Source: Macrolepiota albuminosa (taxonomy: Eukaryota > Basidiomycota > Agaricomycetes > Agaricales > Agaricaceae). Taken from it: a stretch of 64,000 nucleotides of DNA. Shown here in pieces: positions 31,217-57,786 of the stretch (position 1 is the stretch's first letter; every line of letters begins with the position of its first letter). The notes under the pieces are model-generated. The model was not told where the DNA came from and ran no database searches. It worked only from the letters and a program-made list of their open reading frames with translations. Made by a program: the position numbers and the translations under genes. Location: assembly GCA_027475525.1 (NCBI GenBank), contig JAMWFC010000007.1, positions 248,001-312,000 on the forward strand. Direction: 5' to 3'.

Positions 31217-31217
31217 T

Positions 31218-31229
31218 AATATCAAGACT
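31218..31229 (+). promoter_or_regulatory. Self-complementary primer-binding site of element C
   Basis: AATATCAAGACT begins one base after the 5' LTR, where a tRNA-primed element would have a TGG-starting site. It pairs perfectly over 12 nt with 30843-30854, and the next pair out would be a G-U wobble. The same 12-mer occurs at the matching place in C' (reverse at 61474-61485). Confidence 0.82.
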
Positions 31230-31249
31230 CTTTCCTTACACCGTTCTTG

Positions 31250-37000: not shown

Positions 37001-38587
37001 AGTACTTCACCGATCACGACCCCCGCAACCCCCCTGATGGAACCGACCGGGACCCCGCCTTCTCCCTGTCCCCCGACGAAAAACTCCTCCTCCGGGACGG
37101 CCGCATCTACGTCCCGGATCACGCCCGACTTCGCTACGACGTCCTCCGTCAACACCACGACCACAAGCTCCGGGGACATCCTGGAATACGTAAGACCCTC
37201 CAGCTCATCTCCCGGACTTACTTTTGGCCAGGGACGACCACAAGCTCCGGGGACATCCTGGAATACGTAAGACCCTCCAGCTCATCTCCCGGACTTACTT
37301 TTGGCCAGGGTGAAGAAGGACGTGACCCGATACATTCGATCATGCGAGCCCTGCCTCCGGGCCAAGGTCCCCCGACACCGACCGTACGGACTCCTGAAAC
37401 CCCTGCCGGTCGGACGACGCCCCTGGTCCTCAATATCTCTGGACCACATCGTCGAGCTCCCGGAATCTGAAGGGTTCGATGCCATTCTCGTCGTTGTGTG
37501 CAGGCTAACCAAACAGGGCATCTTCCTACCCTGCCACACTACGGATACTGCCCCGGACTTCGCCCGGCTGTTCCTCGAGCACGTCTTCGCCAAGCATGGT
37601 CTCCCGGACGACATCGTCTCCGACCGTGGCCCGACTTCGCCCGGCTGTTCCTCGAGCACGTCTTCGCCAAGCATGGTCTCCCGGACGACATCGTCTCCGA
37701 CCGTGGCCCCTCTTCGTGTCCAAGTTTGGACTTCCCTGTGTAAGGCACTTGAAGTAAAGACTAACCTCTCTACCGCCTACCACCCCGAGACCGACGGTCA
37801 AACCGAAAGGGTCAACCAATCCCTCGAGCAGTATCTCCGGCTGTACGTCAACTACTTGCAGGACGACTGGCGCGCCGAGCTCCCCCTGGCCGAGTTCACG
37901 TACAACAACACGCCGCACTCTGCCACCGGGGTATCACCCTTCTTTGCCAACAAGGGATACCACCCTCGACTGACGCTCTCGCTCCGGGACATCCCGTCGC
38001 ATGCCGCCCACGAGGTCGCCCGGGATCTCCAGTCCCTTCACGATTTTCTCCGGGAAGAGATCGACACCGCGAACCAGGCCTATGCGAAACACGCCGACCG
38101 GAAACGGGAAGACACCCCCGACTGGACCCCCGGGACAAAGGTATGGTTAGATCGACGCCACCTCCGCACCCGCCGGCCCTCCCCAAAACTCGATCACAAG
38201 CGCCTCGGCCCGTTCAAGATTCTGAAGAAGGTCTCGACCCACGCCTACAAGATCGAGCTTCCCCCGGGACTTAGGGGCCTGCATCCGGTCTTCCACGTCC
38301 GCCTCCTGGAACGACATCCCCCGGATCCCTTCCCCGAACGACGACCCGAACCCCCTCCCCCGGTCGAGGTCGAGGACGAGCACCACTACGAGGTCGAAGA
38401 CATTCTCGACTCCCGGAACATTCGTGGGCGACCCCACTTCCTCGTACGATGGAAGGGATACGGCCCGGAGGACGACACTTGGGAACCGCGACGAAACCTC
38501 GAAGGCGCTCTCGACAAACTCCGGGACTTCCAGCGACGGCACCCGGGAGACGACCCCCCCGGGCGCAGGACTCACAGACGGCAGTAG
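33960..38587 (+). CDS. pol: Element C pol (tandem protease, RT, RNase H, integrase, chromodomain)
   Basis: Open in the -1 frame relative to gag; translation probably enters by frameshift near 34032, so 33960 is only the first Met of the frame. Domains: two retropepsin motifs in tandem ([12 protein letters not shown] near 34230 and [12 protein letters not shown] near 34705, each followed by a [12 protein letters not shown] segment); RT with YLDDILIYS near 35980; RNase H ([12 protein letters not shown]); integrase zinc region ([18 protein letters not shown]) and DDE core ([14 protein letters not shown]); chromodomain at the C-terminus ([20 protein letters not shown], then [13 protein letters not shown]). 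Three 77-bp duplications plus 1-nt homopolymer losses (after 36945, 37308, 37709 and 37725) break the frame on paper. The chromodomain suggests integration into heterochromatin, as known for chromoviruses. Confidence 0.92.
34032..34038 (+). promoter_or_regulatory. Candidate -1 frameshift site gag/pol
   Basis: GGAAAAC, read GAA AAC in gag and GGA AAA C in pol, lies 13 nt before the gag stop in the only region where both frames are used. The second triplet slips perfectly; the first does not fit the strict XXX rule. C' keeps the same overlap and heptamer. Confidence 0.45.
36801..36954. repeat. 77-bp-period tandem duplication 2 (likely artefact)
   Basis: Units start at 36801 and 36878; 72 bases match, then the second copy lacks one A of CTAATC. 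C' has a single copy here. Confidence 0.88.
37157..37310. repeat. 77-bp tandem duplication 3 (likely artefact)
   Basis: Units 37157-37233 and 37234-37310 are identical. One G is missing just after the second copy relative to the frame. It lies in the integrase zinc region. Confidence 0.9.
37556..37709. repeat. 77-bp tandem duplication 4 (likely artefact)
   Basis: Units 37556-37632 and 37633-37709 are identical. A missing C and a missing T just after it, compared with C', compensate the frame and keep an open but garbled integrase segment. Confidence 0.9.
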
Positions 38588-38861
38588 TGGGCGTAACCCC
38601 CGCCTCTGGACTCAACCGGGATTCAACTCCCACGTATACTTACTGCTTTCCCCCTTTCTTTTTCCGACCTTACCTACCGTTTAGTACTTTCTTTTACAAT
38701 AGCGCCCCTGACTCTGGGCAAGGTATTCTTTCCCGTTTCCCCGCCACTTTACTTACACCATTCTCCCCGAGAGTAACCAGGTATATACATTTTCTTTTCT
38801 ATAGTACACTATACTACAGTACGAATCGCGAAACCGGCAGACGACAAGAAAACGGGGGCCC
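38588..38861. other. Convergent 3' ends of pol and accessory gene
   Basis: 274 bp between the stop codons of two convergent genes. T-rich blocks (about 38640-38700 and 38780-38800) could serve 3'-end formation on the plus strand. No ORF. Confidence 0.5.
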
Positions 38862-40646
38862 CTAGAGTTGGGACCCCGAACTACCCTCCCCCTCCCCTCC
38901 CCTCGGCCAGCCCCGGAAATCCTCCCCCACCTCCTCTGGACCGTGCGCGCGCCAGACCTCCTCGGCCAACTGGTCCCAAGACGGGAGCTGCTCGCCCTCG
39001 TCCAGGACCCGCTCGAACCATGACCCCGGGGCCGGGACGTTTCTCCGGCGATGCGCTACCACCAGCCTCCCCAACAAGTCCAGGCCCCGCTCCACCCCGG
39101 GGTCCCCTGCCTCCGACCGGAGCCCCTCTTGCAGGGACGCGAGCGCCGCGGCAGCCCCGTCCAGGAGCAGGCGATGCTCCCGAGCCCAGCCTGGAGATGT
39201 CAGAATCGACCCAACCGCGAGAAGAGGAAAACACTCACTTAGAGAGGCCATACGTCCGACGACCACGTCCCGGCGCAAGGCCTCAACCAACTCTGAGCCC
39301 GAGGGACCCTGCGCCGGGATCCCCACCCCCTGCTCCAGCCTGGCCCGCATAGCGTCCAGCTGGGCCTCGACTCCCCCCCGGGCCACCCTCGCCTCCTCCA
39401 GCTCCCGGAGGGCGGCCTCGCGACCCTCCTCCAGACCCCTCCGGATCGCCGCCTCCTCCCTTGCCCCCTCCTCTCGCTCCTCTCGCTCCCGGTCGGCCTG
39501 CTCGAGGCGCTCCTGCAGGGCCCTCACCTCGACATCCAACGGCCGCCCCGACAGCGGAGAAAAAGTCGCCGGCGAGAGGCGCACTGGGGAAGGCGGGGAC
39601 GGAGTCTGGGAGGCCGGGGAGGGGGCCTCCGCGGGCAGACGCGCCCTTTTGGAGGGCCCCGGGGAGGGGCTAGGCGACGCCCGCCGTTTTCCCTTATCAG
39701 GGCGCCCGCCGCGCCCCTCGCGCCCCGGGGCTCCGGACCGGGTTACCCGACGCGTGATCAAGACCACGGGCCGGCCCCGGCCGCTCTCCCGGACGACCCC
39801 CCCTCCCCCAGCCCCGCCCCCAGGACCCTCCACTGGCGCCGCCTCCGGAACCGCCGCCGTCCCCGCGACCCAATCCCTCTCCTCGACACCCATCCTCCGA
39901 GTAATGCCCGCCAAGGGCCAACCCTGCTCCCGCGAAACGCAATAGGCCCTCCAAAGGGCCGAAACGGAACACCGCTCGTGATTGAAGCGGCAGGCGTCGC
40001 ACACGGAGGTGTCGCGCCGGGACGAGACGGACGGGACCTCGAAGGAGCAAATGACGTTGCGACGCGCGCAGTGAAGACACTAGGCACCCGGTTTAGCCCC
40101 GGAATCAGAGGTAGGAGGCCACTTACCGGCCCGTTGCTGACACACCACGCGTGGGGAGGCAAGCCCCGGGGCCTCACCAATGCCCCCTCGAAGGCCTCCT
40201 GCGTGGCACTGGCCCACGCAACCCGTTGGGTATCGGGAACCTCCGAAATGGCCCCCACCGCCATCCCGGAGCGACGGAACCGAGGGGCGACGAGTCTAGG
40301 GCGAGGAGGGGGTGGGGGGCGAGGGGGACGCACGGTCATCCGCGCAAAGGTTGGCGCGGGACGACTCGGCTGAGGCTCCGGGGGGACACTAGGCCCAGCC
40401 TCGGGGACGGGCTCCGAGAGCCGGCTGGGACCCGCCTCGGGTGCCGGAATATTGCGTTGTTCTGAAAAGGGAAGGTTAGTAGGGCAAAGGGGCGGCACGG
40501 GGGTACTCACGTTGTTCGAAGAGCGCCGCTACGCGCTCACGGTCGAGACGAGCCCGGTAACGCGCGTCCCGGGCTCCCCACGCCATGAGGGGCGCGACCT
40601 CGTTCGTCTGCGGGGGCGTCGGGGAATGCGTCGGCGTTCGCGACAT
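38862..40646 (-). CDS. Antisense spliced Zn-cluster accessory gene of element C
   Basis: Four exons on the strand opposite gag-pol: 40646-40511, 40461-40127, 40079-39239, 39190-38862, all in phase, 546 aa. Donors are GTGAGT, GTAAGT, GTGAGT; acceptors TTTTCAG, TGCCTAG, CTCCAG. Intron 3 is 48 nt and would stay open if unspliced, but its sequence is not conserved in the C' copy while its borders are. Exon 3 opens with a Zn2Cys6-like cluster, CLHCARRNVIC then CDACRFNHERC (CX2CX6C-X15-CX2CX6C). Then come a basic NLS-like stretch (KGKRRASPSPSPGPSKRARL) and a long coiled-coil-type region (LEQADREREEREEG). Flanking segments are Pro-rich. Likely nuclear DNA- or chromatin-binding; function unknown. Its start lies 128 bp inside the 3' LTR. 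Confidence 0.85.
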
Positions 40647-40760
40647 AGTTGGGTTTGATGGTAAAATTTTTTTTCGTTACGTGGCAGGACAGGCGCCGGT
40701 TCCCACGCTCAAGCCCGGTCCGGACCTCCGGCTACGCGCGCCTCGGAGGGTCTCGGCGCT

Positions 40761-40773
40761 GAGGGGGGGGTGA
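40761..40773 (+). promoter_or_regulatory. Polypurine tract of element C
   Basis: GAGGGGGGGGTGA directly before the 3' LTR, the usual place for the plus-strand primer of reverse transcription. Confidence 0.75.
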
Positions 40774-41571
40774 TGTCACGACCCCTCCCCCCCGGAACCT
40801 CCCCGGGACACCCCCGGAGTCCCATCCGGGAACCTCTTTCGTCAATCCCACAGCGCACCCCGCCCCCACCGCTACCGACGCCGCCCTCACACGCATCAAG
40901 GACCACCATCAGCCATCAACGATCGCCATCAGCCAGCCCCCCGGGACCCCTGCATCACGGACCCCGGGATCACCCGCCATCAACGATCAGATCACGCGGC
41001 TCGCATACGGCCATCACGCATCACGCCCCACGCATCACGACTCCCTCCGCACCAATTGATCGCGCGTCCCCACACGCGCGATCCCGGTATACAGTCCCCG
41101 GCCGCTACTCAATGGCCCCCGGAACTCATCCCAGACACCCCGGAATCCCGAGACACGATCCGTAGTACTTATAGTATAGCTCCCCGTTGTATTCGACAGT
41201 CTTGATATTGCATAACTGTTACTTGGATATTGCGTGCCCTCTGTTTGACTGGTACGCCTCGTTTGGTACGCTTCGACTGGCACGCCTTGGTATTCGCGTG
41301 CTATAAGTTTGGTACGCACTTCGCGACTCTTAAATTACTAACTTGGTCTCGTCTTAGAACCTCCGGTTCACGACTCGACCCCCTCTAACCCTCAGCTACT
41401 CTCATCCAAAACCCCCGGACTCTAGTCCCCTCTCCCGGGATTACTCCTGTCCTCGTCTTGAACCCCGGAGTCCTAGCCCCGGAGTTCCAGACACCCGAGT
41501 ATCCGTAGATCAAGTCCGCATCGTAAGGGCGTCGCTTTCCCGGAAAGCCCCCGATTCAGCGGAACCTGACA
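40774..41571 (+). repeat. 3' LTR of element C
   Basis: 798 bp, same length and, as far as read, same sequence as the 5' LTR. It is followed by the CATGC target duplication. Confidence 0.95.
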
Positions 41572-41826: not shown

Positions 41827-41829
41827 ATG

Positions 41830-42400: not shown

Positions 42401-42698
42401 ATTAGGGGTTATTGCTTTTCTTGTCATCCTTTTCTTTTCTTCTTGTCATGGTACCTGTAATGTAGCAATAGTGTAATTATAACAAATGTATATACTTGGT
42501 CTCTGGGACCAGAAAGTAATGTAAGTAATATAGCAAAAAACTGGGGAAGAGTACCTTGCCCAGACTTCAGGTGCTACTGTGGGAGGGTGATTGTTGGTCT
42601 TGTTAAAAGTATCAGAAGGGTAAAGTAGAGAGAGGGAGAGCAGAAAATATACATGGGAGTTGAATCTCTATTGAGCCCAGAGGTGGGGGTTATGCCCA

Positions 42699-44101: not shown

Positions 44102-45054
44102 TGATGACGCCCAAAGTTTTGGTCAGTAACAAATGTAACAATTGTGTTACCGTACCAAGAGTGTGCGTTGGGCGCGCTAAAAGTGATTTGAGGAGTCCCG
44201 GGCAGGTCCCAGAGAACGCGTCTGTGAAAAAGGGGAAAAGTCGGTAACGGGGTCGGCAAGTGTCAAGCGCTAAGGTAAAGCGCCTAAGGAAAATGCGGTA
44301 AGTGAACACGGCAATGTGAGCGGCAAGAGCACGATATGCTTAGCGAAGTCTAAGCGTCGATAATGCCTGCCGTAGTTGCAAGGCGCGAGTATGTCGAGTG
44401 TTGGCGAGCGTCTGCAACTGCCGATGAGTTTTGACGTTGCCGACCGTAGCGTGAATGAGCTCTTGAGCGTAAGTGAGACTGAAGTAAGTGGGGGAAACTC
44501 TGGTCTATTCGTCTGATCTGATGATTGTACAAGTCGGTAAGTACTTTTATACTACAAAGAGTTCGCCGTCGCCAGTGACCAACCATCGCCAAAGTGCGGT
44601 AAACTGGAAAATTTCATAGGGGTAGCTCCAACGGTTTCCGATCCCTACCGTCCTTGGAGGACCCTTGGCGCCACCAGGCGGCAGATCGCGGTGCTAAACC
44701 ATCAATCCATCACCCTTCTGTCTGTCAGAGCACCTAAGCGACGTTTGGCGCCAAATCGAGACGGTAAGCGGTGTCAGACGCCAAGGTCAAACGCCAAGCT
44801 GTCCGTCAGTTTTTGATAGATCATCAAGCTTCTCGCTAAGCGCTGTCATCAGTGACTGATGCCATCTGTCAGTTGTCATTCCTGCTGCCGTCGGCGCTAT
44901 CATTGATTGGATCTGCTTCTTGCCGTGCGTGGCCGTCGGGAATGGCTTAAAATGGGTAGAACGCGTGCGCTAAGTTCGGAACGAGTGCGGCAAGGTTTCC
45001 GGAGCCGGTGCCGAGCCTGCCGTTGATGCGCCTAACCTGTGTAGGGTCCTATCA
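44102..45054 (-). repeat. 3' LTR of element D
   Basis: 953 bp, TGATGACGCCC to GGTCCTATCA on the plus strand, with TGAT...ATCA ends. It contains about 24 CG(G/C)(T/C)AA words by eye, including the 12-bp palindrome TTTGGCGCCAAA at 44744-44755. Confidence 0.93.
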
Positions 45055-45067
45055 TCTCCCCCCAACT
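45055..45067 (-). promoter_or_regulatory. Polypurine tract of element D
   Basis: On the minus strand CAGTTGGGGGGAGA ends directly at the 3' LTR, the expected place of the plus-strand primer. Confidence 0.7.
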
Positions 45068-45091
45068 GAAAAATTGACTGTCCTCAGTCAC

Positions 45092-45157
45092 CCAATAAGG
45101 CTACCGTTACCGCTTTTGTGACAGGTGGTCCGTGCGTTCTTGAGATTTCGTTTATAG
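45092..45157 (+). promoter_or_regulatory. Candidate promoter of the D accessory gene
   Basis: CCAAT at 45092-45096 and TATA-like TTTATAG at 45151-45157, 67 bp before the ATG at 45224. Both lie between the 3' LTR and the gene, so the gene may have its own promoter rather than using the LTR. Confidence 0.45.
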
Positions 45158-45223
45158 TCCTGGCGCGCAAGATTGGACTTCACCTCTCTTCTCTGATTTT
45201 ACCTGGCGCTCTTCAAAAATAAT

Positions 45224-47634
45224 ATGTCTTTCCACATTCCAACTCCGCCCCCCGTACCGTCTCGCGAGGCTCAAGACGCTGCCTCTGCCTATATCGACAA
45301 GGCGAATAATTTCATTAGGCGCATCAAGGGTGTAGGCGCGGAGGCGCCTCCAAACTTGGTCGTTGCCGTGATGAAGCTGTTGGAACGTTGGTATGAAGTT
45401 CGTGTTCTTGGCGTAGGGTGGGATAGGGAGATCGAGGTGCGGGAGTGGTGCCGGGCGCGGTACGTCGACAATCGTGGCGCCGACTGGTTAGCGCCATTTT
45501 CTCGTTTTGTAAGTTGTTTTAGTCCTTGCCGTGTCGCTAGCTGATTGGGTTCCTAGGCGCCTCCGCCTGTCCCAACGATCGAGGACGAGTTGGAGGACAT
45601 TTTGTCTGGTGCCTTGCCGATGACGGTAAGCGCGCCAGCGGCAGAGTGAGTATTCCTAACCCATTTTTGACTTAGCTTTGGTCTGACTTGTCACCACACA
45701 GTAAACAAGAGGTGTTGGCGCCTTTGGCGCGCATGCAGGTTGCGGAGGAGGTCGCGGCAAGGCAGGAGGAGATATCTCAGGACGCCCGTGAGATCACCAG
45801 GGCGCTAGAGGAGAGAGAGAGAGTGGCCGCATTGGCGGCAGAGATGGAGGACGTTGCCGCTGGGAAGGCGCCAGTCGCCAGGGAACAGAGCAAGGTTTCG
45901 CGCGCCGGCAGTGCACAGAGCCCAGCACTGCCGGCTAGCAGGAAGGGCTCCCCAGTAAAGCCGGGTAAGGCTTTGAAGAAAGTGAGTTTTTGCTCTTGCC
46001 GCTGCCGCGCCACGCTAACCACTGTTTCCAAGTCTCGCAAGGGAAAGGCTCCCCAGTACGCGGTAAGCGGTCTTTTGGAAGTCTGATTATTTTTATTTAC
46101 CGTGTTTTGTCTAGGCGCCCACGCAGTCTAGCTTCGACGACAAAGAGCTGAAGGGACTGCTCTTGCCGCGTCGCGATGAGGCCGTCCTTGACGAGGGGCA
46201 GGAGGCCGGGGTCGTTATGGAGGAGATGAAGGGGAAGAAAACCGTTGCCTTGGCGACCCGGCAAGCGTTTAAGGAGGCTCGGGGGGCGGTAAGCGACATT
46301 TCTGTCTCCTTTAGTCTCTTGCTGACTTGTAGCGCTAGTGTGATAAGTGCTGGGCCGACAACGACCCAGAAGGCTGTTGGTTCCCGACCGGGGCCCAGCC
46401 TTGCTATCGCTGTGGTGCCCTCAAGCGCGCTTGCACCATCGACGGGGCCAAAAGTCGCGAGCGTGGCGGCGCGCCAGACGCCCTCGTTGAGAAGACATTT
46501 TCGCGCGCGGTTTTGGTGAGGAGGGCCAGGGAGTTTGTGGAGGGCCAGAAGCGGAAGGTCGCTGCCGGTGGCATGGCAGCTATTGGACGAGCCGCCTTGG
46601 CGTTGCCGACACGCCAAGGGGATGGGACGGAATCTGTCGGCAATCGAGGCGCCGGCGAGCGCCAAGGGACTTCGGTCCCAGAAAAACGACAAGCCCCCTC
46701 CCCAAGCAAGGGGAAGGGCAAAGCAAAGCGCCCCCGTGTTGTATCGTCGTCGCCTTCCCCCTCGCCAGCGCCAAAGGACACCGAAATGGAGGACCTGGAG
46801 AAGGCGTTGGCGGCTAGTCGCCTCCCGCCTCGTGACTCAGAGGCTGGCCCAAGTGGCCTCTTGTCGCCTATTCATTTGGCGGCACGGTCCCTTGGCGAGG
46901 AGCAGGTGGAGGCAGAGCGGGAAGAAGCTGGCGACTTGGCGCCACAAGAGGAGCGAGAAGAGGCCCCCGCCGACATCGAGATGGGGGAGGAGAAGGCAGA
47001 GGGAGCGGCAGCTGGAGGGGATGAGGACGCTGAAGGGGAGGAAGACGAAACCTTGGCGACGCAGCGCGAAGGTGAAGAGGAGGAGGCCCCCGCCAAGGAA
47101 GAGGTAGCGGGAGCAGGAGAGGGAGCGGAAGGAGTCACCAGGGAGGAGCCAGAGTGGCACTGGCTACCTCCCTATGGTAACGTTGCCCCATGGGAGGTGT
47201 CCGACCCCGAAGACGTTGCCGGTTTGGAACCTAGGCGCCCCGTAGTCGCCAGGATCAATCCCGCCTGGACCCCTCGTCCTGAACCGACGGTCACTGGCGA
47301 CGCTTTTCAATGGCTGGGGCAAGACCTCGTCTACCCAGTTATTGCACTTAATCCCCGTGATGTGCTGGAGAGGTACTCCCAGAGGGCTGCAACGATGGAG
47401 GCCACAATGAGTCGGGAGCGGGAACGGGTTCGAGGGCAGTTGATGGCGCTAAGGCTGCGCTATTCTAACTTGGGTCGAAGTCTACATGTCCTTCGCGACT
47501 ACCAAGCCGATTGCCAAACCGCCCTGGACTGGCAAACGGCTAACAATATTTTGCCTGGCGACCTCCTTCCTCTTCGCGATTCCTCCTTGCCTGCGACCGA
47601 CGACTCCCTTTCGATGGACGACGTTAGCGAATAG
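45224..47634 (+). CDS. Antisense spliced Zn-cluster accessory gene of element D
   Basis: Six exons that stay in phase: 45224-45508, 45557-45645, 45702-45981, 46033-46062, 46115-46288, 46339-47634; 717 aa. Donors are GTAAGT, GTGAGT, GTGAGT, GTAAGC, GTAAGC; acceptors include CCTAG, ACACAG, GTCTAG and GCTAG. The exon 4 acceptor is a non-standard CCAAG and is the weakest point. Exon 6 opens with CDKCWADNDPEGC and CYRCGALKRAC (CX2CX8C-X8-CX2CX6C), a Zn2Cys6-like cluster, preceded by a phase-0 intron exactly as in element C. Then come a basic segment (KGKGKAKRPRV), a long acidic Glu-rich region (about 46900-47150) and a helical Arg-rich C-terminal part. Exon 3 is also charged and helical. It lies opposite gag-pol, convergent with pol. 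Likely nuclear; role unknown. Confidence 0.82.
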
Positions 47635-48067
47635 ACGGACCTTAGCGTAGATAGGCCGTCTGTGTAAATAATACTTTGTTTTTGTTACCGCCTGAATATC
47701 GCTTTTGCCGCTTTGCTTTGAAGTGAAATGATAAGTTCCCTGGTCTGAGTTAGCGCAGCCTCAGAAAGCAAAGAGAGTAAAGCAAAGAGAAGGCAAGCGG
47801 CAAGAGCTTTCTAAGGTAGGTTTTAGCAAGAGCAATAGTATGTGAGGGACTTAGACAAATTTGGAGGAAAAAGGGAAACGCTCAGTAGATCATCATAGCG
47901 AAAAACCCTTGGCGAGAGTTGCGCAAGGCGCTAAGCGTTGGCGATACGCTAGCGCTGCGACTTGACTATGTAAAGAAATGTCTGTTGAATATAGTATAGT
48001 AAGTCACGGCAAGAAAGATAAGTAAGGTATCTAATAGAAAAATAAGAGCTTATCAGTATAGTCTTTT
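47635..48067. other. Gap between convergent accessory gene and pol of D
   Basis: 433 bp with no supported ORF. It contains several CGGCAA/CGCTAA/TTGGCG words and should hold the 3' ends of both transcripts. Confidence 0.5.
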
Positions 48068-51000
48068 CTAATCATTTTCTTCTTCTTCAACTAAAGTCGG
48101 CAAGTCATCATCGTCCAATAATTCGGTTTCTTCAAGTTCTCTCAGCTTGGCGGTGTCGATATCTAGCGCTTCAAGCGGCAAGTCGATTCGTTCCCTGGCG
48201 AGATACGGTAGTAGGCGAAAAGCGGCAACAGGTCGATGCAGTACTGAACCATCTAGTTCACAGATCGTTCCCTGGCGAGATACGGTAGTAGGCGAAAAGC
48301 GGCAACAGGTCGATGCAGTACTGAACCATCTAGTTCACAGAGCACGTAAGCGCCTCCACAGTTACGAGAGATAACTACCAAAGGTCCAAGATAGCGCGGT
48401 CGCATTTTCTTGTTGTATGAAGTCTCGATTTTGGAGTTGCGCATAAGCACTAGCGCGCCCCTCGGGAAGTTGTAATCTTTGATGGTAGCGCTATGCTCGG
48501 TCTCGAATCGCAGGGCTGCTTGGCGACGGGCGCTAAAGACTACTTCATGAAGTCGCTCCAAATCTTCTTTCCTTCGTTGGAGGTCAATAGCTCGTCTGGC
48601 GACAAGGTCGGTAGTCGCTAAGATACTGTTGGGCGCTGGCTGAAGATATGTCGCTTCTATAATGTCGGCAGGGAGTAACGGATGGGTGCCAGTAGCCGCG
48701 TAATAGGGAGAACAACCCATGCGCTTACGAATAGTAACTCTTTCCGACCAGAACACTGAATAGGTCGCTTCGCTCCAACGAGACTCGTCACCATCGACTG
48801 CCTTGAAGAGCGCTTGCCGAACGTCAAAGTGGGGTCTCTCTACCAGGCCATTGGCGCGCTTGTTGTAGCCAGATACTCGAATGTGATGAATGTTGTACTT
48901 CTTGGCGAGATATGTTAGCGCTTTGATGATGGGCGCACCATTATCCGTGACGATCTCTCTTAGCGCTCCCCAACGGCAGATGATGTCCTCAAATATCCAC
49001 TTGGCGACCGCGTCGGTATTTTCTCTCTGGAGCATTCGAAATTCAGGCCAGTGGATTAGCGAGCAACGACCTTGAATGATGTACTTGTAGCGACCAGACT
49101 TGGGCATATGCATGGTGTCGACGTAGATTTTGCTGAAGAGGGGAGCTGGCGTTGCAACGGTTGGCGGTATGAGCACTTGGCGTGTCTGTTGAATTTGGCA
49201 GAGGTGGCAAGTCCTAATGTACCAGGCGATGTCGGCACTAGCGTGTGGCCACCAGAAGCGTTCTAACAGAGAGGCTCGAGTAGCGTACAGACCTCTATGT
49301 CCTAGCTCGTCATGCATGGCGCGCAGGACTCGTAAACGACCTTCTGGCTTGATGATCAGCTTGTGTGCGCCATCTCGATTTCGTCGCCAAAGTCGGTTGT
49401 CGGTAAAGAAGAAGTGGGTAGCATAGCGGATAAAGGTAGCGTATTGTTCGTCGGTAAGGTCTGGGGGTCGCTTAAGGTCTTGTATCCATTGCTCGACTAC
49501 TAACAGGCGACTATCTTCCGCCTTTGCCTTGGCGGATCGGGGAACGGCATCGTAGGTCAGGTTTCTGCTGTCTTCCCTTAGCGGATGGGGCTCTTGTACG
49601 ACTTTTACTGGAGGCGAGTTTTGACTGTGGATGCTTGCCGTGTAGAACGTGAGGGGTGCGCTAAAGATCTCGGGGCGGTAAGGGACAATGGGATGTAACA
49701 GGATGCTGGTAGGCTGTTGCCGTCGTAGTAGGGGTATTGGCTGTTGTATAAGGTGCACGAAACCATGCAATCGGTCGATCCAGTCCTCGAAATCGCTATC
49801 AGCCTGTGGGTCCACTGCCGGGTCGCCAGGCTGCCGTGGTCGCCTAGAGAGTCCATCTGGCCCGTGGAAAGAGCTCTTGACGTGTACCAACTCAAAGTGA
49901 AACATGAGGATGGCGACTACCCACCGATTCATGCTAGCGGATGGCTGAATATCGGGATTCTGCAACATGCCCTTGATGTACCTAGCGTCGACTTCAACGA
50001 TAAGGTTCCGTACGCCAATCAAATACATCTTTAGCGACCGGAAGGCTTTGAAGAGCCCATAGAGTTCTAGCTTAGGCTGACTGTAGCGAGACTCTCGGTC
50101 GTTTAGCGTGATAGACCCAAAGCGGTTGTAGCGTCGCTGTTTTCTAGCTTAGGCTGACTGTAGCGAGACTCTCGGTCGTTTAGCGTGATAGACCCAAAGC
50201 GGTTGTAGCGTCGCTGTTTCCGATTGTCGCTAAGGCACTGGCACAAGAAGTAGCCAACAGCAATGTACGAGGTATCCACTGCCAAGATAACAGGGTCGGC
50301 AGAGGTATAATCGATGGGGACTAGGGGCTTGGCGTCTTGTAAGGCTTTTACTAAGTCGCGTTGGGCAGTGACCTGGTCTGGCCCAAATTCGAAGGGCTCG
50401 TTAGCGCGGGTGAGTCGGTTGAGGGCATGTGCGCGATGGGCAAAGTTCTTGACGAATATCCTGAGAACGCCAACGGTGCCAAGAAAGGCGCGAACTTCAG
50501 ATAAGTCGCGGCAAGGACCCCATCGCTCTAGGAGTGCTAAGCGAGACTCGTCGGGAACGCGACCGTCGGGAGTGCATATGTGACCGAGTATTTTGAACCT
50601 TGGCGCACAAAGAAGGAGCTTGTGGCCGCTAAAGGTACCACCGCTATACTTCATGCGCTGGAGAACTCGATTGAGCAGCAAGAAAAACTCCCATAGCGCT
50701 AAGCGAATGTTGGGGTTCTCGGGATGGGTCGCCGGTAAGCCGTTAACGAGTCGCCAGTCTTTGGGACCTTTGACGCCAACGTCATCAATGAAGCTAAGGA
50801 CATGGTGCGGTATCTCGGGTTGGAGGATGAAGGTAATGTCATCATGGAATATAGGGACTGAGTTTGTCCAGCCCATCGGCAAGGTGACTAGGCGCAGTGC
50901 GCCAAACGGAGTTTGAAACGTAGTGAGGTCGCGGGAAGAAGGGTGAATCAAGCGCTCGTCGTAGCCAACGTAGAGGTCAAGGGTGGCGCCACAAATACGC

Positions 51001-51971
51001 CCGGCAAAGGACTCGGCAACGTGGTCAGGGAAAGGCGGTACGCCAGAGTGTCGTATGGTGACTCTATTTAGCGGCTCGAGACTATGGACTATGCGTAGAT
51101 TGCCGTTCTTTTTGAGGACACAAAACCAACGAGAGCGGTAAGAACTATTGGAGGGTTCGTAAACGCCAGCCTGTATTTTGGTCCTAATGATCTGGCAGAC
51201 CTCGGCTTCGATCCCAGGCGGTAACGGTCGGTTGTGCTCAGTCCACGGTACGTGAGGAATGGTCGGGATGACGACAGGCGGGAAGAAATCTGTACGTAGA
51301 CTGCCGCGTTCTGAGTCCTCCCAAGCGAAGGCTTTGTCTTGCTTAGCGACGAGATCGGTAAGGACGTTCAACTCATCTTTGGTCAAAAATCCTGTGTCGT
51401 GCTCCTTGGCAAACTGCTGCTGGCGTTCTGCGGTAAAACGTCCTGTGGGCTGAAAAGGTGGCGGATTCGGCGATAAGGTCGGCATGTCGGCAAGAGGGTC
51501 GCCAATGATCTGGCGCTCGATCCTAAACGTCTCGGGAGAGTGCGTAGCGATAGGTTTTGTTTTAAGCGCAACTGGCTTATATTTCTTTTTAACTTGAACC
51601 CCTTTCCTTTTGGGAGCGTTAGCTTGGTTATACACAGAGGTGGAAAGGGGAACTGTAGCCTGAGGGGCGGCAAGTCCAAGAACGGCAGGAGACGAGGCTC
51701 CGGGAAGAGTGGTGAGATAAGTATCGGTAGACGCAATATTTTGAAATGACTCGGAAGCGGTAAGGTACAAGTAGGCAAGAGAGGAGTCGGTAATATTTTG
51801 GTTTTTCTGGGAAGGTTCTGCGTCGGTAGTGGGTAAAGTAGTTAAAACGTCTTGGTCAAGAAAAGCAGTAGACAAAACAGTTACAAGACCAGTTGAATGG
51901 TCAAATTCCAGCGTTAGCGCTACATCTCCGTGATCGTCGCCAATCACCTCCTTGATGGTCTGTGAAAACAC
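48068..51971 (-). CDS. pol: Element D pol (RT, RNase H, integrase)
   Basis: One frame once two 77-bp duplications (50065-50218, 48188-48341) are discounted; about 1250 aa. The frame has no ATG at its start (GTG at 51971) and is open upstream in the -1 frame of gag, so a gag-pol frameshift is likely. RT has the active site FIDD (SFIDDVGVKG near 50800) in place of YLDD, plus a WFCVLKKNGNLRIVH segment. RNase H (ILAVDTSYIAVGYFL) and the RNase H tail (FHGPDGLSRRP) follow. The integrase has the zinc site (HDELGHRG, CHLCQIQQ) and DDE core (YVDTMHMP, TDNGAP, LVERPH). Removing the duplication gives an acidic C-terminus (ETELLDDDDLPTLVEEEEND) and a stop at 48070-48068. No chromodomain. Confidence 0.9.
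48188..48341. repeat. 77-bp tandem duplication 5 (likely artefact)
   Basis: Units start at 48188 and 48265. It truncates pol at 48253 on paper; the single-copy reading extends pol to 48068. Confidence 0.9.
50065..50218. repeat. 77-bp tandem duplication 6 (likely artefact)
   Basis: Units start at 50065 and 50142. It splits D pol inside RNase H; removal joins the two halves in one frame. Confidence 0.9.
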
Positions 51972-54256
51972 CGGTGGGGAGGCTCGTTGGCGTGCTGGTC
52001 GGTAAACTCCGGGGGCTTAGCGCGGGCGCCTTTTCGTTGTCCCCTAGGGAACGTTGGCACCGTTCGTCGGATTCCGGAATTTGGGTCGCTAATTGTGAGG
52101 GTCGTTTCCTCGTCGGTAACCGTCTTGACGACTGATTGCGCCAAGACGTCGAAGGGTCTGCCGAGTAGTAGGTCGTAAGCTGGTGAACGTAAGATGTGGA
52201 TCTGAAGATAAAACGTGATGTCGCCAAGGGTGCACGGCACATTCTTGGCGAGGCCTAGGGATCTGTCTACCGTACCGTTAGCGCTCTGCATATTTAGTAT
52301 AACGGTAGGGTCGTAAATGAGGCCTAGATCGTTAGCGACTTCTGCTGCCATAGAAATAATCTGAGACCCGCTATCCACGATTGCCTCTACTTCGTGCTTG
52401 TTGTCTACGGTTAGCGCTACCGAGCGGATAGCGTGCGATTCTTGAGCGACGGTAAGAATGGCGGGGTCCTCTCCATGGTCTACAGACCTAAGGTAGGTCT
52501 CTACTGGGTCCACCGAGGTGGCGTTAGCGATGGAGTCGGCTGGAGAATCTTCAGCGTCGGGAGAGTCGATGGTAACAGAGAAACCAGGAAGCGCGTCGTC
52601 GAGTTCATCAACCTCGGCAACGGCTGTCGCCAAGGGTCGTCGAGGAGTGACTGCCGTCTTGACTTGGTTGCGGACGTCGGGAGCAATACTACAAAGCTCT
52701 TCTACTGACAAGGTGACGGCGGTTTTCATAATACGGTTGAAGACGTGGTTGGATTTTTCTATGTCGAAAATTGGCGCGGTAGGTCGGTAGCCACCCTCAG
52801 GACGCTTCTCGGGAGCGGCAAAGTTTCGTTGTGCGGGAGCATGGTAACGGTCGGGAATCCCGGAGTAGGGATGGAGAGGCGGCAAAGGCGGTTCGGGAGC
52901 GGTAGCGGACGACGAGGGTTCTGGAGCAGGAGCAGGGGCAGTAGCAGGCGGTGCGGCAGGAGCGGGAGTCGGTAACTTGCTAGCGGGAGGCATTGGCTTG
53001 TATCCTTTAAGAGGTTGTTTAGGCTGCTTAACTTCAACCCCATCAAAGACCTGGTTCTTTAGCGAATCTAATTCCTGCTGCAGCTTGGCGATACGCTCTT
53101 CCCGCGAGAAAGTAGGGTGGTCGCCAACGCTGTCGAAATGTAGGACCTCGTGAATCATCTGCTGTTGGGTCGCCTGTTCGGGGTCGGGGTTAGCGTTGCC
53201 AGATAGCGTGCCGGTAACGATTTGTCCTGGGTTGCGCCTATGCCATTCATCAACTCGCTCCTGGAAGGACTTCTTGTCTGGGTAGTTGGGGATGGTGGCG
53301 CCAGTGGTGAGGACTATCTTGCCGTCGATAGCTCGTCGAATTCTACCTTGGCGAACGTAATTCTCGAGGGTAGCGCAGCGTCCTCTAGTCATGGTGTGGC
53401 CAATTTCCCCACAGAAGTGGCAAGGGCCAGGTGCGGGTACGTTAGCGGGTCGGTTAGCAGTCAGGTTGGTGGTAATCATAGTTTCGATACGTGTCATCGC
53501 GGAGGCGACAGCGGCGGTAATAGCAGCATTGAGCTCTTCTTTCTTAACGAAGTCGGCAACAGGAGGCGGGATGGGAATGATACCGTTAGTTCGCTCAGGG
53601 GGTGGGCTCGTCCTAGCGCGCTGCAGTCCAACGCCAGTGTCCGTTCCCTTGAGAACCCATTTACCGGCTTCAAAGACGTCGGCAACGTTATAGGGCTCGT
53701 CAGGGTGATGGGCCTGATGAACTATCTCTAGGCGACGAGCAATACGAGTCCAAAGCGAAGTCGGGATGCCTTGCTGGAACAGGCGACGTTCCTCGTTAAT
53801 GTATAGCTTGCCGTTCTGCAGAAGCCACCTAGCGATTTTCTGGAACTCGCGGTAATACGTGGAGAACGCGCCAAGCGAAGATGTGCCGTTATCGAAAGAT
53901 TCCTGGACTAATTTCTGCAACTCGTTTACCGTGTAGCGGGTAGCCTCCTCAGCGCCAGGGTACAGCTGGATAACTGCCGTCTTCCAGTCCTCATACGAAG
54001 CGCCTTGAGCTGGAGCTGGCGGTGCGGCAGGGACAAAGGCGGCAAACTCCGTAAGACCTGTCCACGTCTCTGCCGTGTCATACGATACGTATCTTGCCGC
54101 GTACTCCTTCATCTGCGTGTGGTCGGTAATGTTACAATCTCTGAATAGATACTCCAACTCCTTGAAATACTGGGAGAGCTCCCGTGGCTTGGTCTCGTCC
54201 CATTTCGGTGCCGAGAAGTGGTTGCGTGGCGGCATGCGCTGGACTTGTTGTTCCAT
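51944..54256 (-). CDS. gag: Element D gag-protease
   Basis: 770 aa, uninterrupted. Starts MEQQVQRMPPRNHFSAPKWD. Gag core (ELSQYFKELEYLFRDC; TYYREFQKIARWLLQNGKLY) in the first 200 residues; a zinc-knuckle-like CHFCGEIGHTMTRGRC (CX2CX4HX6C, two residues longer than usual) near residue 285; a Pro/Ala-rich linker; then a single retropepsin with EAIVDSGSQIISM near residue 640 and DLLLGRPFDVL. The protease is therefore in the gag frame, not in pol as in element C. The last 28 nt overlap pol in the -1 frame. A decayed homologue is at 13750-15008. Confidence 0.92.
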   Translation of the reverse strand: MEQQVQRMPPRNHFSAPKWDETKPRELSQYFKELEYLFRDCNITDHTQMKEYAARYVSYDTAETWTGLTEFAAFVPAAPPAPAQGASYEDWKTAVIQLYPGAEEATRYTVNELQKLVQESFDNGTSSLGAFSTYYREFQKIARWLLQNGKLYINEERRLFQQGIPTSLWTRIARRLEIVHQAHHPDEPYNVADVFEAGKWVLKGTDTGVGLQRARTSPPPERTNGIIPIPPPVADFVKKEELNAAITAAVASAMTRIETMITTNLTANRPANVPAPGPCHFCGEIGHTMTRGRCATLENYVRQGRIRRAIDGKIVLTTGATIPNYPDKKSFQERVDEWHRRNPGQIVTGTLSGNANPDPEQATQQQMIHEVLHFDSVGDHPTFSREERIAKLQQELDSLKNQVFDGVEVKQPKQPLKGYKPMPPASKLPTPAPAAPPATAPAPAPEPSSSATAPEPPLPPLHPYSGIPDRYHAPAQRNFAAPEKRPEGGYRPTAPIFDIEKSNHVFNRIMKTAVTLSVEELCSIAPDVRNQVKTAVTPRRPLATAVAEVDELDDALPGFSVTIDSPDAEDSPADSIANATSVDPVETYLRSVDHGEDPAILTVAQESHAIRSVALTVDNKHEVEAIVDSGSQIISMAAEVANDLGLIYDPTVILNMQSANGTVDRSLGLAKNVPCTLGDITFYLQIHILRSPAYDLLLGRPFDVLAQSVVKTVTDEETTLTISDPNSGIRRTVPTFPRGQRKGARAKPPEFTDQHANEPPHRCFHRPSRR

Positions 54257-54615
54257 AGCGACTGTGTTGGCGAGTTCGGTTAGCGGTAATGGGGAAGGAG
54301 TTCTTGGTATTGGCGACGGGGTAAGTGAAATTACTAGTTGCGAAAGAGGCGTTAATGGCGTGATAGGAGTAACTGGTTGCGGTACGGTAAATGGCGACGC
54401 TAAGGGGTCGTCGGCGCTAAAGTCGAGAGAATGCGGGAAGAGATCAGGAAATGCGTCTACAGTGGCGTTCTGTAGTTCCTGGGCAAGAGAGAGACCCGGT
54501 AAGGCACCAGGTGGTTGTGGAGTTGATGGGTGGGAAGGAGCTATGCCTTCTGCCGACTGGTCTAGCAGGCGGCGCCTACGTTGGAGACGGGTTTCTGGCG
54601 GAATTCTGCCCTAGA

Positions 54616-54636
54616 GATCCCTCGCGGTGGGCTCCA
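54616..54636 (-). promoter_or_regulatory. tRNA-type primer-binding site of element D
   Basis: Three bases inside the 5' LTR the minus strand reads TGGAGCCCACCGCGAGGGAT. Its complement ends in ...GGGCTCCA, like a tRNA 3' end with U before CCA. A U at that place is typical of tRNA-Cys, so that tRNA is the first candidate. It contrasts with the self-priming site in element C. Confidence 0.6.
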
Positions 54637-55081
54637 ATTTGATGACGCCCAAAGTTTTGGTCAGTAACAAATGTAACAATTGTGTTACCGTACCAAGAGT
54701 GTGCGTTGGGCGCGCTAAAAGTGATTTGAGGAGTCCCGGGCAGGTCCCAGAGAACGCGTCTGTGAAAAAGGGGAAAAGTCGGTAACGGGGTCGGCAAGTG
54801 TCAAGCGCTAAGGTAAAGCGCCTAAGGAAAATGCGGTAAGTGAACACGGCAATGTGAGCGGCAAGAGCACGATATGCTTAGCGAAGTCTAAGCGTCGATA
54901 ATGCCTGCCGTAGTTGCAAGGCGCGAGTATGTCGAGTGTTGGCGAGCGTCTGCAACTGCCGATGAGTTTTGACGTTGCCGACCGTAGCGTGAATGAGCTC
55001 TTGAGCGTAAGTGAGACTGAAGTAAGTGGGGGAAACTCTGGTCTATTCGTCTGATCTGATGATTGTACAAGTCGGTAAGTA

Positions 55082-55089
55082 CTTTTATA
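55082..55089 (-). promoter_or_regulatory. TATA box of element D
   Basis: TATAAAAG on the minus strand (also at 44544-44551 in the 3' LTR). The transcript start is expected about 30 bp further along the minus strand. Confidence 0.65.
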
Positions 55090-55501
55090 CTACAAAGAGT
55101 TCGCCGTCGCCAGTGACCAACCATCGCCAAAGTGCGGTAAACTGGAAAATTTCATAGGGGTAGCTCCAACGGTTTCCGATCCCTACCGTCCTTGGAGGAC
55201 CCTTGGCGCCACCAGGCGGCAGATCGCGGTGCTAAACCATCAATCCATCACCCTTCTGTCTGTCAGAGCACCTAAGCGACGTTTGGCGCCAAATCGAGAC
55301 GGTAAGCGGTGTCAGACGCCAAGGTCAAACGCCAAGCTGTCCGTCAGTTTTTGATAGATCATCAAGCTTCTCGCTAAGCGCTGTCATCAGTGACTGATGC
55401 CATCTGTCAGTTGTCATTCCTGCTGCCGTCGGCGCTATCATTGATTGGATCTGCTTCTTGCCGTGCGTGGCCGTCGGGAATGGCTTAAAATGGGTAGAAC
55501 G

Positions 55502-55655
55502 CGTGCGCTAAGTTCGGAACGAGTGCGGCAAGGTTTCCGGAGCCGGTGCCGAGCCTGCCGTTGATGCGCCTAACCTGTCGTGCGCTAAGTTCGGAACGAG
55601 TGCGGCAAGGTTTCCGGAGCCGGTGCCGAGCCTGCCGTTGATGCGCCTAACCTGT
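55502..55655. repeat. 77-bp tandem duplication 7 (likely artefact)
   Basis: Units start at 55502 and 55579 in the D 5' LTR; the 3' LTR has one copy. Confidence 0.92.
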
Positions 55656-57786
55656 GTAGGGTCCTATCATCGGGGGGGTTGCGGGGGTCGTGGTCGGTGA
55701 AGTACTTGTCTCGGGGGGCGCGGCGGATCTGGCTCAGGGTCCCTTTGTCGTTTAAGATCAGTACGGCATTCAGATGTTTGAGAGGGATCATGACGCAATG
55801 ATTGAATGCATTGCGTGCCACCTCGAATGACTTCTTGGGATAGACGTCCGGTCAACGGGTGAGGGCATTGGGTTTAGCTCCAAGTCGTCCCGGGCGGTAC
55901 TGGATCGTGAAGTCATATTCCGAGAGAACCTCGGACCATCGGGCCTGCCGTCGACTAAGTTGCTTGGTTGTGGTGAAGTACTGCAGGTTGTTGTGATCAG
56001 AGTAGACCTGAATCCGGTGCCGGGCTCCCTCGAGGTAGGCTCGCCATTGTTTGAAGGCTTCAATGATGGTGAGGAGCTCCTTGTCGTAGATGTCGTAGTT
56101 GAGCTCGGCATCGATCATGGACCAGGTGTAGAAGGCGACTGGCTGGGGCTCCCCACTGTCAGGTCCCATCTGCAAGAGAATCCCGGCGATGGCGTAGTCG
56201 GAGGCGTCACATTCCAGGATAATCGGGAGGGCCAGGTCATAGTGCCGGAGTATGGGGGCGGCTGTGAAGGCCTCCTTAAGCAGGTTAAAGACACTCTGGC
56301 ACTTACTGTCCCAGTTCCAGGCGACGTCCTTATGCGTGAGCCAGTTGAGGGGTTTCGTGATACCGGAGTAGTTATCTATGAACCTCTGGTAGAAGTTAGC
56401 GAAACCCAAGAAGGACTGTACTTCCTTCACGTTCCAGGGTTGCGGCCAGTTGACGATGGCCTCGACCTTGTGGGGATCCATGCAAACGCCGTTCGGGAAT
56501 ACGATGATGCCAAGATACTCAACCTCTTCCGTGTGGAACGAACACTTCTCAGGCTTGGCGTGGAGGTTGTGCTTCTGGAGGCGTTCGAGGACTTGCCGGA
56601 CATGCTTCTGGTGGTCCTCCTTCGAGTCAGAATAGATGAGTATGTCGTCCAGGTAGACTATCACGAAGATGTTGCTCATGTCGTGGAAGATGTCGTTCAT
56701 GAAGTATTGGAACGTGGCAGGGGAGTTAGTCATTCCGAAAGGCATCACAAGATACTCAAACAGACCATATTGCGTGCAGAACGCGGTTTTCCACTTGTGT
56801 CTCAGGGCAATGCAGACGTTGTTGTAACTGGAGCAGAGGTCAATTTTTGTGTAAACCTTGGCACTGCGGAGTCAATCAACCAGATTGCCAATAAGCGGGA
56901 GCGGGTAGCGGTTCTTCTTGGTGATCTTATTGAGTCCCCGGTAGTCGACGCAGAGTCAGAGCGAACCGTCCTTCTTCTTGGCAAATAGAACCGGGGCTCC
57001 AGCGGCGGAGGCGGAGGGTCAGATGAATCCCTTACCAAGCATTTCGTCGAGGTAGTCCTTGAGGGCCTGGAGTTCGACTTCCGACATGTTGTATACCTTG
57101 CCAAAAGGGGGGGCAGCTCCTTCCTCGAGGTTGATAGTGTGGTCATAGGGGCGGTGAGGGGGAATCTCCTTGGCGTCTCCTTCGGAGAATATGTCAGCGA
57201 ACTCGTGATACTCTGGGGGAACTACTTCTCAGAGGATCTGCTCCTCGGTTTTCTTTTCTGAGGGAATAGCGTCTCCTCATAGATGTTCTTCTGGGAGAGA
57301 CGGCGAGGTGTGTAGCTGAAACATGGGTGTTCCATCCTTCATGAGGCGGGCAAAGGGGGCAGCTCCAATGATCCTAATGTCAAGTGCGTTCGGATCGATC
57401 AGAGTTGTGGATGCATCGGCCAGAGCAGGTTTGACGCATGTCTGAGACCGGGCAGGGTAGTTCGGCCCTTTGTACTTATTCCGAGGAATGTTTGGGGGTT
57501 GGTCAGGGGCCTTGCGGTCTCAGATGGGCGTGGGGGGCACGGCAGTCGTCCCAGGGGTGTCGGGCATTGGGTCGCTTCCTAGGGCCCGGAGGTGCATGGC
57601 GGTCGAGGGGTGATCTTCGGGTCCTGGGAAGGTTATGGTGAGCGTCCTCCAATCGATGTTGGGGTTCGTGTCGCGCAGCCAGGGTAGTCCCAGCACCATT
57701 GGGGTTGATTCGTGAAGTCATGTGACCAGGAAGTCGGAGGTGAACTCGTAGTCATTGTCCAGGGTCATGCATCCCGAGTGAAACCT

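What the first reader, a model, noticed from the sequence alone, without database searches (positions are those of the whole stretch)
45224..47634. A second, unrelated-looking Ty3 family carries the homologous antisense gene
Element D has different gag, protease placement, LTRs and primer type and no chromodomain, yet it has a six-exon, 717-aa antisense gene in the same slot with a Zn2Cys6-like cluster (CDKCWADNDPEGC, CYRCGALKRAC), a basic segment and a charged helical tail. In both C and D a phase-0 intron ends directly before the TGT codon of the first cluster Cys. A shared intron position argues for common descent, so the module is old or has moved between families.
Basis: seen in the sequence. 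Interest (0 to 1): 0.88.

Follow-up and report, generated by a model that had tools for sequence, protein, structure and literature searches.

The report
Retrotransposon with antisense zinc-cluster gene
A mushroom retrotransposon carries, on its opposite strand, a real intron-containing gene for a likely DNA-binding protein, and the whole element is packed with a short DNA word that this protein may use to recognise its own copies.

Summary
In detail: element D has a six-exon, 717-aa antisense gene at 45224-47634. Own-genome copies show strong protein constraint (median dN/dS 0.09 in 29 of 30; AG|TGY acceptor in 30 of 30). All 83 database relatives found are Termitomyces proteins.

The homology claim fails its sequence test: C and D cluster profiles score no better than Cys-preserving shuffles. 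The shared phase-0 intron before Cys1 is real, but two of 13 host Zn2Cys6 loci read have it too. Separate capture from host genes fits at least as well as common descent.

New here: D is saturated with CGSYAA, 198 sites in 11.55 kb against 26.8 in shuffles. It lies on both strands, in the LTR and in gag-pol beyond synonymous shuffles, and is retained between copies (0.82 against a 0.57 control median). Element C and a D-related subfamily show other, weaker words; two copia elements show none comparable to D's.

I propose a self-recognising nuclear factor, VANC-like or HBZ-like. Binding is not shown.

The parts
44102..45040 (-). 3' LTR of element D (element sense is the minus strand); repeated sequence runs on to 45056
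   Evidence: identical to 54640-55578 over 939 bp; 24 CGSYAA, shuffles 2.3
54640..55671 (-). 5' LTR of element D, with an internal exact 77-bp duplication at 55502-55655
48188..54610 (-). gag-PR / RT / RNaseH-INT of element D in three ORFs; no chromodomain hit
   Evidence: Pfam scan; the RVT_1 match is below its curated cut-off, RNaseH and integrase H2C2 above theirs; two exact 77-bp duplications inside
45224..45508 (+). antisense gene D, exon 1 (ATG 45224)
   Evidence: ATG kept in 28 of 30 copies
45557..45645 (+). antisense gene D, exon 2
45702..45981 (+). antisense gene D, exon 3
46033..46062 (+). antisense gene D, exon 4 (30 nt; 27 nt in six of seven copies looked at)
46115..46288 (+). antisense gene D, exon 5
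46289..46338 (+). phase-0 intron 5, ends directly before TGT of Cys1
   Evidence: AG|TGY in 30 of 30 copies
46339..47634 (+). antisense gene D, exon 6: six-Cys cluster CX2CX8CX8CX2CX6C, basic NLS-like segment, acidic stretch, charged C-terminal tail
   Evidence: dN/dS median 0.09
44102..55655 (.). dispersed word CGSYAA throughout element D (198 sites, 17.1/kb, both strands)
38862..40646 (-). antisense gene of element C for comparison (exons 40646-40511, 40461-40127, 40079-39239, 39190-38862; 546 aa)
   Evidence: exon 3 dN/dS median 0.20 in the 20 of 30 copies with dS>0.05
30300..41560 (.). element C region with its own enriched word CCGGGA/CCCGGA

Best explanation
Element D encodes an accessory nuclear protein from an intron-containing gene on its antisense strand, starting 168-184 bp from the inner edge of the 3' LTR, so probably driven from that LTR end (inferred). 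SHOWN: it is a selected protein gene, and the element is filled with one degenerate DNA word (CGSYAA) kept at DNA level on both strands and inside coding sequence. INFERRED: the zinc cluster binds this word, so the protein coats D copies along their length and recognises its own family. MOST LIKELY EFFECT (inferred): it counters CpG-methylation or heterochromatin silencing, or activates transcription, of its own family only, as VANC does for VANDAL transposons. Introns can persist in this gene because they are antisense in the genomic RNA and so are not spliced out during retrotransposition (established logic). C carries an analogous gene and a different, weaker word. Whether the two genes share descent is undecided; I lean to separate recruitment from host Zn2Cys6 genes.
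For: Gene: dN/dS 0.07-0.14 at dS 0.33-0.79 (29 of 30 copies); 98 exon-6 match rows from 97 scored of 1237 candidates in the own genome, about two thirds without a stop; Termitomyces relatives keep CDxCWADNDPxxCW. DNA word: 198 sites against 26.8 sd 4.7 in dinucleotide shuffles, falling to background outside the element; synonymous-codon shuffles: gag-PR 46 against 9.7, RT 32 against 8.2, RNaseH-INT 25 against 3.7, antisense exon 6 15 against 4.2; 14-17/kb in 30 of 30 D-family loci L009-L038 against 0.5-3.1/kb in 30 of 30 C loci; retention between copies 515 of 626 in 11 pairs against a control median of 0.57 over 265 patterns. Other families: C CCGGGA 40 against 12.2 in gag-pol, retained 0.70 against median 0.44; E subfamily GCGCTA 39 against 5.4 over 8.5 kb. 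Site geometry, second copies of repeats left out: same-strand offsets of 12-13 bp 11 against 2.4 (0 of 1000 simulations), pairs within 10 bp 9 against 26. Decayed relatives keep the word in CpG-deaminated form: relic D-like gag 0 intact, 25 deaminated against 12.2 sd 3.6; C-like relic 21 against 6.5 sd 2.7. Two copia ORFs: best word z 4.0 and 3.8 against 10.7 in D.
Against: No binding, expression, localisation or methylation data. The link between protein and word is co-occurrence in three families (D, E, C), and E is related to D. The words of C and E are much weaker than D's: in E's one long pol ORF GCGCTA is 10 against 2.4, z 4.4, barely above copia's best; C's best z by dinucleotides is 8.6, while an AT-rich word (ATAATA) reaches 7.1 in the old 10-20 kb stretch; C's antisense exons show only CCGGGA 7 against 3.7. 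Two further C-type subfamilies carrying the gene (L092, L093; 2.6 and 2.0 kb, mostly antisense gene) show no CpG word like D's; their top words, such as GGAGGA and CATATAC in L092, look like low complexity. AlphaFold pieces are low confidence (mean pLDDT 52 for D, 61 for C); Foldseek (C model only) and PDB sequence searches gave nothing useful. The loop between Cys2 and Cys3 of D is acidic, unlike DNA-binding Zn2Cys6 domains as I recall them. The close-spacing depletion partly reflects that hexamers cannot overlap freely.
Confidence: 0.42

Rival explanations
1. The C and D antisense genes descend from one old antisense module that diverged beyond sequence recognition.
For: Same slot and orientation, short introns, phase-0 intron exactly before Cys1 in all D and C copies and subfamilies read, six Cys in two CX2C groups, KRRASPS-like basic segments in the C family and in P0003-type relatives of D, less clearly in the window's D; nominal hhalign P 0.0078. 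With 5 introns in 2151 coding positions, hitting one fixed position by chance is about 0.2% (my arithmetic).
Against: No profile similarity beyond shuffles; other intron positions and phases differ; host Zn2Cys6 loci can have the same intron; N- and C-terminal parts look unlike.
Confidence: 0.3
2. Two independent captures of host Zn2Cys6 genes into the same slot, each bringing the intron before the cluster.
For: Each cluster matches a host Zn2Cys6 profile a little better than the other (scores 16.4 and 18.8 against 10.4); apparent host introns near or at Cys1 in 7 of 13 loci read, two exactly there in phase 0; antisense orientation protects introns.
Against: The host matches are weak (E 0.012 and 0.0021, one comparison each, half a cluster, no shuffle control); no specific host donor gene was found; Pfam Zn_clus does not hit D and hits C only at E=0.2.
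Confidence: 0.5
3. The protein is an HBZ-like transcription regulator of the LTR rather than an anti-silencing factor; body sites are by-products.
For: Gene starts beside the 3' LTR; the LTR has the highest density of CGSYAA among the D parts counted (25.6/kb).
Against: Density is still 15.7/kb through gag-pol, above synonymous expectation, which LTR regulation alone does not need.
Confidence: 0.25
4. The word serves integration targeting or self-marking: the factor tethers new D cDNA to, or away from, existing D copies, in place of a chromodomain.
For: D has no chromodomain hit.
Against: C has both a chromodomain and an antisense gene plus word.
Confidence: 0.1
5. The word is unrelated to the antisense gene: a host factor's site or a mutational or reverse-transcription signature.
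For: Only co-occurrence links them; L092 and L093 carry the gene without an obvious word in the part read.
Against: Different families have different words; in D it is two-stranded and retained between copies; two copia elements in the same genome lack one.
Confidence: 0.3

Closest known systems
Plant Retand (Ty3) antisense ORFs with TRP28 domain, PMC11963269 (abstract and passages read)
   Same: Ty3 element; conserved antisense ORF between pol and 3' LTR; predicted DNA binding; regulatory role proposed
   Different: TRP28 domain absent here; plants, not fungi; the words zinc, intron and fungi do not occur in the paper's main text, and the passages read mention no dispersed word
VANC anti-silencing proteins of VANDAL transposons, PMC5735166 (passages read), PMC10398659 (abstract and outline seen)
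   Same: TE-encoded factor whose relatives have different short target motifs enriched in their own elements
   Different: Different kind of element (VANDAL is a DNA transposon, recalled); motifs form tandem repeats in noncoding regions, whereas here the word is scattered through coding sequence and both strands; binding and demethylation are shown there and not here
HTLV-1 HBZ (as described in passages of PMC11963269; further detail recalled)
   Same: Nuclear protein from the antisense strand of an LTR element
   Different: bZIP-type (recalled), no zinc cluster; sequence not compared here
Fungal Zn2Cys6 binuclear cluster factors (Pfam PF00172)
   Same: Six Cys in two groups; CX2C...C repeated; NLS-like segment nearby
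   Different: D spacing CX2CX8CX8CX2CX6C with acidic first loop; no Pfam hit
Fungal DNA transposons encoding TET/JBP dioxygenase, PMC12730594 (search listing only)
   Same: Fungal mobile element carrying a possible counter to DNA methylation
   Different: Enzyme, not a sequence-specific binding protein

Membership tests
Zn2Cys6 (PF00172) | profile hit over cut-off | tested here: not met
   D no hit at E<=1; C E=0.2, 12.2 bits against cut-off 21
Zn2Cys6 (PF00172) | CX2CX6CX5-12CX2CX6-8C spacing (recalled) | tested here: not met
   D CX2CX8CX8CX2CX6C; in relatives 22 of 39 with a cluster start could be parsed, 20 with 8 and 8, 2 with 7 and 9; C has a 15-residue middle loop
Zn2Cys6 (PF00172) | two-zinc, two-helix fold | tested here: inconclusive
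   mean pLDDT 52 and 61; short helices after each CX2C only in the C model
Ty3 LTR retrotransposon | LTRs plus PR, RT, RNaseH, integrase in that order | tested here: met
   LTR pair, Pfam order on the minus strand; RT match E=0.0017 below curated cut-off, integrase seen through the H2C2 domain only
Retand-type antisense ORF | antisense ORF between pol and 3' LTR | tested here: met
Retand-type antisense ORF | TRP28 domain (PF04195) | tested here: not met
   no Pfam family for the 717-aa protein at E<=1
VANC-like anti-silencing system | short family-specific motif enriched in own copies | tested here: met
   strong for D; weaker for C and E; not seen in the parts of L092, L093 read
VANC-like anti-silencing system | motif in noncoding tandem repeats | tested here: not met
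   dispersed in coding and noncoding sequence
VANC-like anti-silencing system | protein binds motif and removes methylation | not testable with these tools
   needs EMSA/ChIP and bisulfite sequencing
C and D as one homologous family | profile similarity above Cys-preserving shuffles | tested here: not met
C and D as one homologous family | shared, fixed intron position | tested here: met
   30 of 30 and 30 of 30, also L069-L072, L092, L093; also seen in host loci L084, L087

The most novel reading that the evidence does not exclude
Ty3 retrotransposons of this fungus write a family-specific DNA recognition word into their entire sequence, coding regions included, and carry on the antisense strand the zinc-cluster protein that reads it, so each family identifies and activates or unsilences only its own copies. 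Word and reader diverge together between families (D CGSYAA, E GCGCTA, C CCGGGA).
Probability: 0.36. Interest if true: 0.93.

Novelty: new variant of a known kind. Interest (0 to 1): 0.8.

Why it matters
If the protein reads the word, this is another, independent case of sequence-specific self-recognition by a mobile element (beside VANC), in a retrotransposon and in a fungus, with sites imposed on coding DNA through synonymous choice. It makes the evolution of TE-versus-silencing specificity testable by simple binding assays on natural protein-word pairs (D, E, C), and would offer compact sequence-specific chromatin tools. It also shows how a retrotransposon can keep a gene with introns. Even without the mechanism, an 11.5-kb element with one degenerate 6-bp word about every 58 bp, retained between copies and falling to background outside the element, needs an explanation.

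Tried and rejected
Chance ORF: rejected by dN/dS, conserved splice sites and Termitomyces relatives. Codon-usage or composition artefact for the D word: rejected by synonymous shuffles, by the LTR and by two copia elements. RNA signal: unlikely, as both strands carry the word (109 and 89); one variant, CGGTAA, is 34 to 7 against the sense strand, perhaps because it resembles a splice donor. Common descent of C and D by profile: not supported. Structure route: low-confidence models, no fold match for the C model; the D model was not searched. PDB sequence search: one chance match for D, none for C. Zn_clus search of the own genome gave 62 matches, from which I chose 16, mostly starting near profile position 1, as intron controls. 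Words in the old stretches at 1-30 kb: no CpG word comparable to D's; an AT-rich word reaches z 7.1. Paper searches for fungal antisense ORFs, Zn2Cys6 in retrotransposons, or dispersed motifs: in the titles and abstract starts listed I saw no report of this gene or word; long lists were cut to 8-20 titles, and the library holds only open-licence PMC papers.
Full report
WHAT IS THERE. Element D lies on the minus strand with LTRs at 44102-45040 and 54640-55578, identical over 939 bp; a further 16 bp of LTR sequence is shared beyond an internal 77-bp duplication. Gag with protease, RT-RNaseH and RNaseH-integrase ORFs fill 54610-48253. It starts 184 bp from the identical LTR stretch, or 168 bp if the LTR ends at 45056. 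Element C has a four-exon, 546-aa gene in the same slot. The two six-Cys clusters are the only matches to a permissive pattern in six frames of the window, against a mean of 0.025 in 40 shuffles.

IT IS A REAL GENE. Single-sequence searches found nine relatives of D and six of C, all Termitomyces hypothetical proteins. A profile search gave 79 hits, five of them among the nine already found, so 83 distinct D-type relatives, all named Termitomyces. These searches score only the roughly 8000 candidates sharing most short words, so other fungi are not excluded. The own genome (100 Mb, 129 contigs) gave 98 match rows for D exon 6 (97 of 1237 candidates scored) and 141 for C exon 3 (138 of 1222 scored), which are lower bounds. 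In the 30 D copies fetched, dS to the window copy is 0.33-0.79 and dN 0.03-0.08 (29 with dS>0.05; median dN/dS 0.09); for C, 20 of 30 have dS>0.05 and median dN/dS is 0.20. The 30 and 30 are the best-scoring copies and several are near-identical, so they are not independent, and constraint in older copies was not measured. The gene does not overlap gag-pol, so this is constraint on the antisense frame itself.

ARE C AND D HOMOLOGOUS? The intron before Cys1 is phase 0 and fixed: AG|TGY in 30 of 30 D and 30 of 30 C copies (three D copies have a GC donor), in D-type L069-L072 and in C-type L092 and L093. The proteins are not detectably similar: whole-protein hhalign probability 5% with nominal P 0.0078; cluster-focused profiles fall below shuffles that keep only the cysteines in place. 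Each resembles a small host Zn2Cys6 profile a little more, over half a cluster and without a shuffle control. Of 16 host Zn2Cys6 loci that I chose from 62 Zn_clus matches, 13 were read upstream of the cluster: an intron seems to end exactly at Cys1 in phase 0 in two related loci, and 2-7 nt before it in five others. So the intron may be an inheritance from host factors. I give separate capture 0.5, one old module 0.3, other 0.2.

THE WORD. Counting words in element D showed CGCCAA, CGGTAA, CGGCAA and CGCTAA each at 6.6-8 times expectation, i.e. CGSYAA: 198 sites in 11.55 kb against 26.8 sd 4.7 in 100 dinucleotide shuffles; other stretches of the window have 0.5-2.0/kb, two copia pieces 2.7 and 1.1/kb and host Zn2Cys6 pieces 1.6/kb. 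Leaving out the second LTR and two local duplications, 170 sites remain. Over the whole window it is 252 against 87.1 sd 8.8 (0 of 100 shuffles as high). Each position matters: single changes at positions 1-4 drop counts from 198 to 7-21 for each excluded base, position 5 to 14-44, position 6 to 29-87. Inside coding sequence the excess survives synonymous-codon shuffling in all four ORFs tested (46 against 9.7, 32 against 8.2, 25 against 3.7, 15 against 4.2). It is on both strands (109 and 89). The 30 D-family loci L009-L038 carry 14-17/kb and the 30 C-family loci L039-L068 0.5-3.1/kb. Comparing 11 chosen copies of those 30 with the window copy, 515 of 626 sites are kept as CGSYAA (0.82), second among 265 patterns of the form CGxxNN (median 0.57), behind only an overlapping pattern that shares CG[CG]CAA. 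One of the 11 pairs, L012, aligned at only 0.75.

OTHER FAMILIES HAVE OTHER, WEAKER WORDS. Element C: CCGGGA 40 against 12.2 in synonymous shuffles of gag-pol, and CCCCGGA 7 against 0.6 around its LTR; it is raised in the six C loci examined and retained 0.70 against a median of 0.44, rank 10 of 161 CpG words. A D-related subfamily E (L073 plus L069, 8.5 kb): GCGCTA 39 against 5.4 and AGCGCT 30 against 5.7 (a palindrome, counted on both strands), with CGSYAA well below D's density; in its longest pol ORF alone GCGCTA is 10 against 2.4, z 4.4. Two young copia elements: best word z 4.0 and 3.8 with no coherent set, against 10.7 in D and 7.6 in C. In the old stretches at 1-30 kb no CpG word compares with D's, though ATAATA reaches z 7.1 by dinucleotides, close to C's 8.6. 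Because the C and E words proved weaker on recheck than I first wrote, I lowered the probability of the novel reading from 0.38 to 0.36.

DECAY. A relic D-like gag at 13.70-15.55 kb has no CGSYAA but 25 sites of the form TG/CA-SYAA against 12.2 sd 3.6; over the wider 13.7-23.5 kb there is no excess (65 against 59.1). A C-like relic at 41.56-44.10 kb has 21 deaminated TCCCGG against 6.5 sd 2.7. So the words look like old features whose CpGs decayed as methylated CpGs do (inference).

MECHANISM. The word is two-stranded, spread over the whole element, retained between copies, spaced (an excess of same-strand pairs at 12-13 bp, 11 against 2.4, 0 of 1000 simulations) and differs by family. That is what a family-specific DNA-binding protein would need, and the one extra protein of the element has a zinc-cluster-like motif beside a basic segment. 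I therefore propose self-recognition followed by unsilencing or activation. The first step (binding) is inferred, and the second is by analogy with VANC, whose relatives have different short motifs (passages of PMC5735166). Retand elements in plants show the same anatomy with another domain (abstract and passages of PMC11963269). Antisense placement lets the gene keep introns through the RNA stage.

CAVEATS. The window contains ten exact tandem duplications of 77 bp, which look like unmerged k-mer overlaps of an assembler (inference). Three lie in D (48188, 50065, 55502), none in the antisense gene. Repeat copies may therefore be assembly composites, and the LTR identity should not be used to date the insertion. 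Host identity (Termitomyces or a close relative) is inferred from protein hits only.

Noticed in passing
31490, 37157, 37556, 48188, 50065, 55502, 57787, 58228, 58743, 61531: Ten exact tandem duplications, all with a 77-bp offset; they lie in or beside retrotransposon sequence and look like unmerged k=77 assembler joints.
   Followed up: partly
13700-15550: Relic of a D-like gag (pieces 60-73% identical to D gag) with CpG-decayed CGSYAA words.
   Followed up: partly
41560-44101: Decayed C-like element on the opposite strand, with a C-terminal antisense-gene remnant at 41926-42339 (43% identical) and words TCCAGGA/CCTGGA, the deaminated form of C's word.
   Followed up: partly
55744-61283: Another C-like element (pol 87% identical to C) in which CCGGGA is not enriched but CCGGAG is; possibly a shifted word.
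   Followed up: no
L058 (own-genome C copy): C-family locus in which GCGCTA, the word of subfamily E, is enriched 13 against 1.3 beside CCGGGA 16 against 5.1; possibly a neighbouring E element.
   Followed up: no
44102-55655: CGGTAA is 34 to 7 in favour of the strand opposite to the genomic RNA, as if splice-donor-like GGTAAG were avoided in the sense RNA.
   Followed up: no
44102 and 55671: No clear target-site duplication at the ends of element D.
   Followed up: no
P0021 (Termitomyces sp. J132 protein): One database relative is annotated as a 909-aa protein that also carries Pfam PF14223 and PF22936, so it is probably a fused gene model.
   Followed up: no
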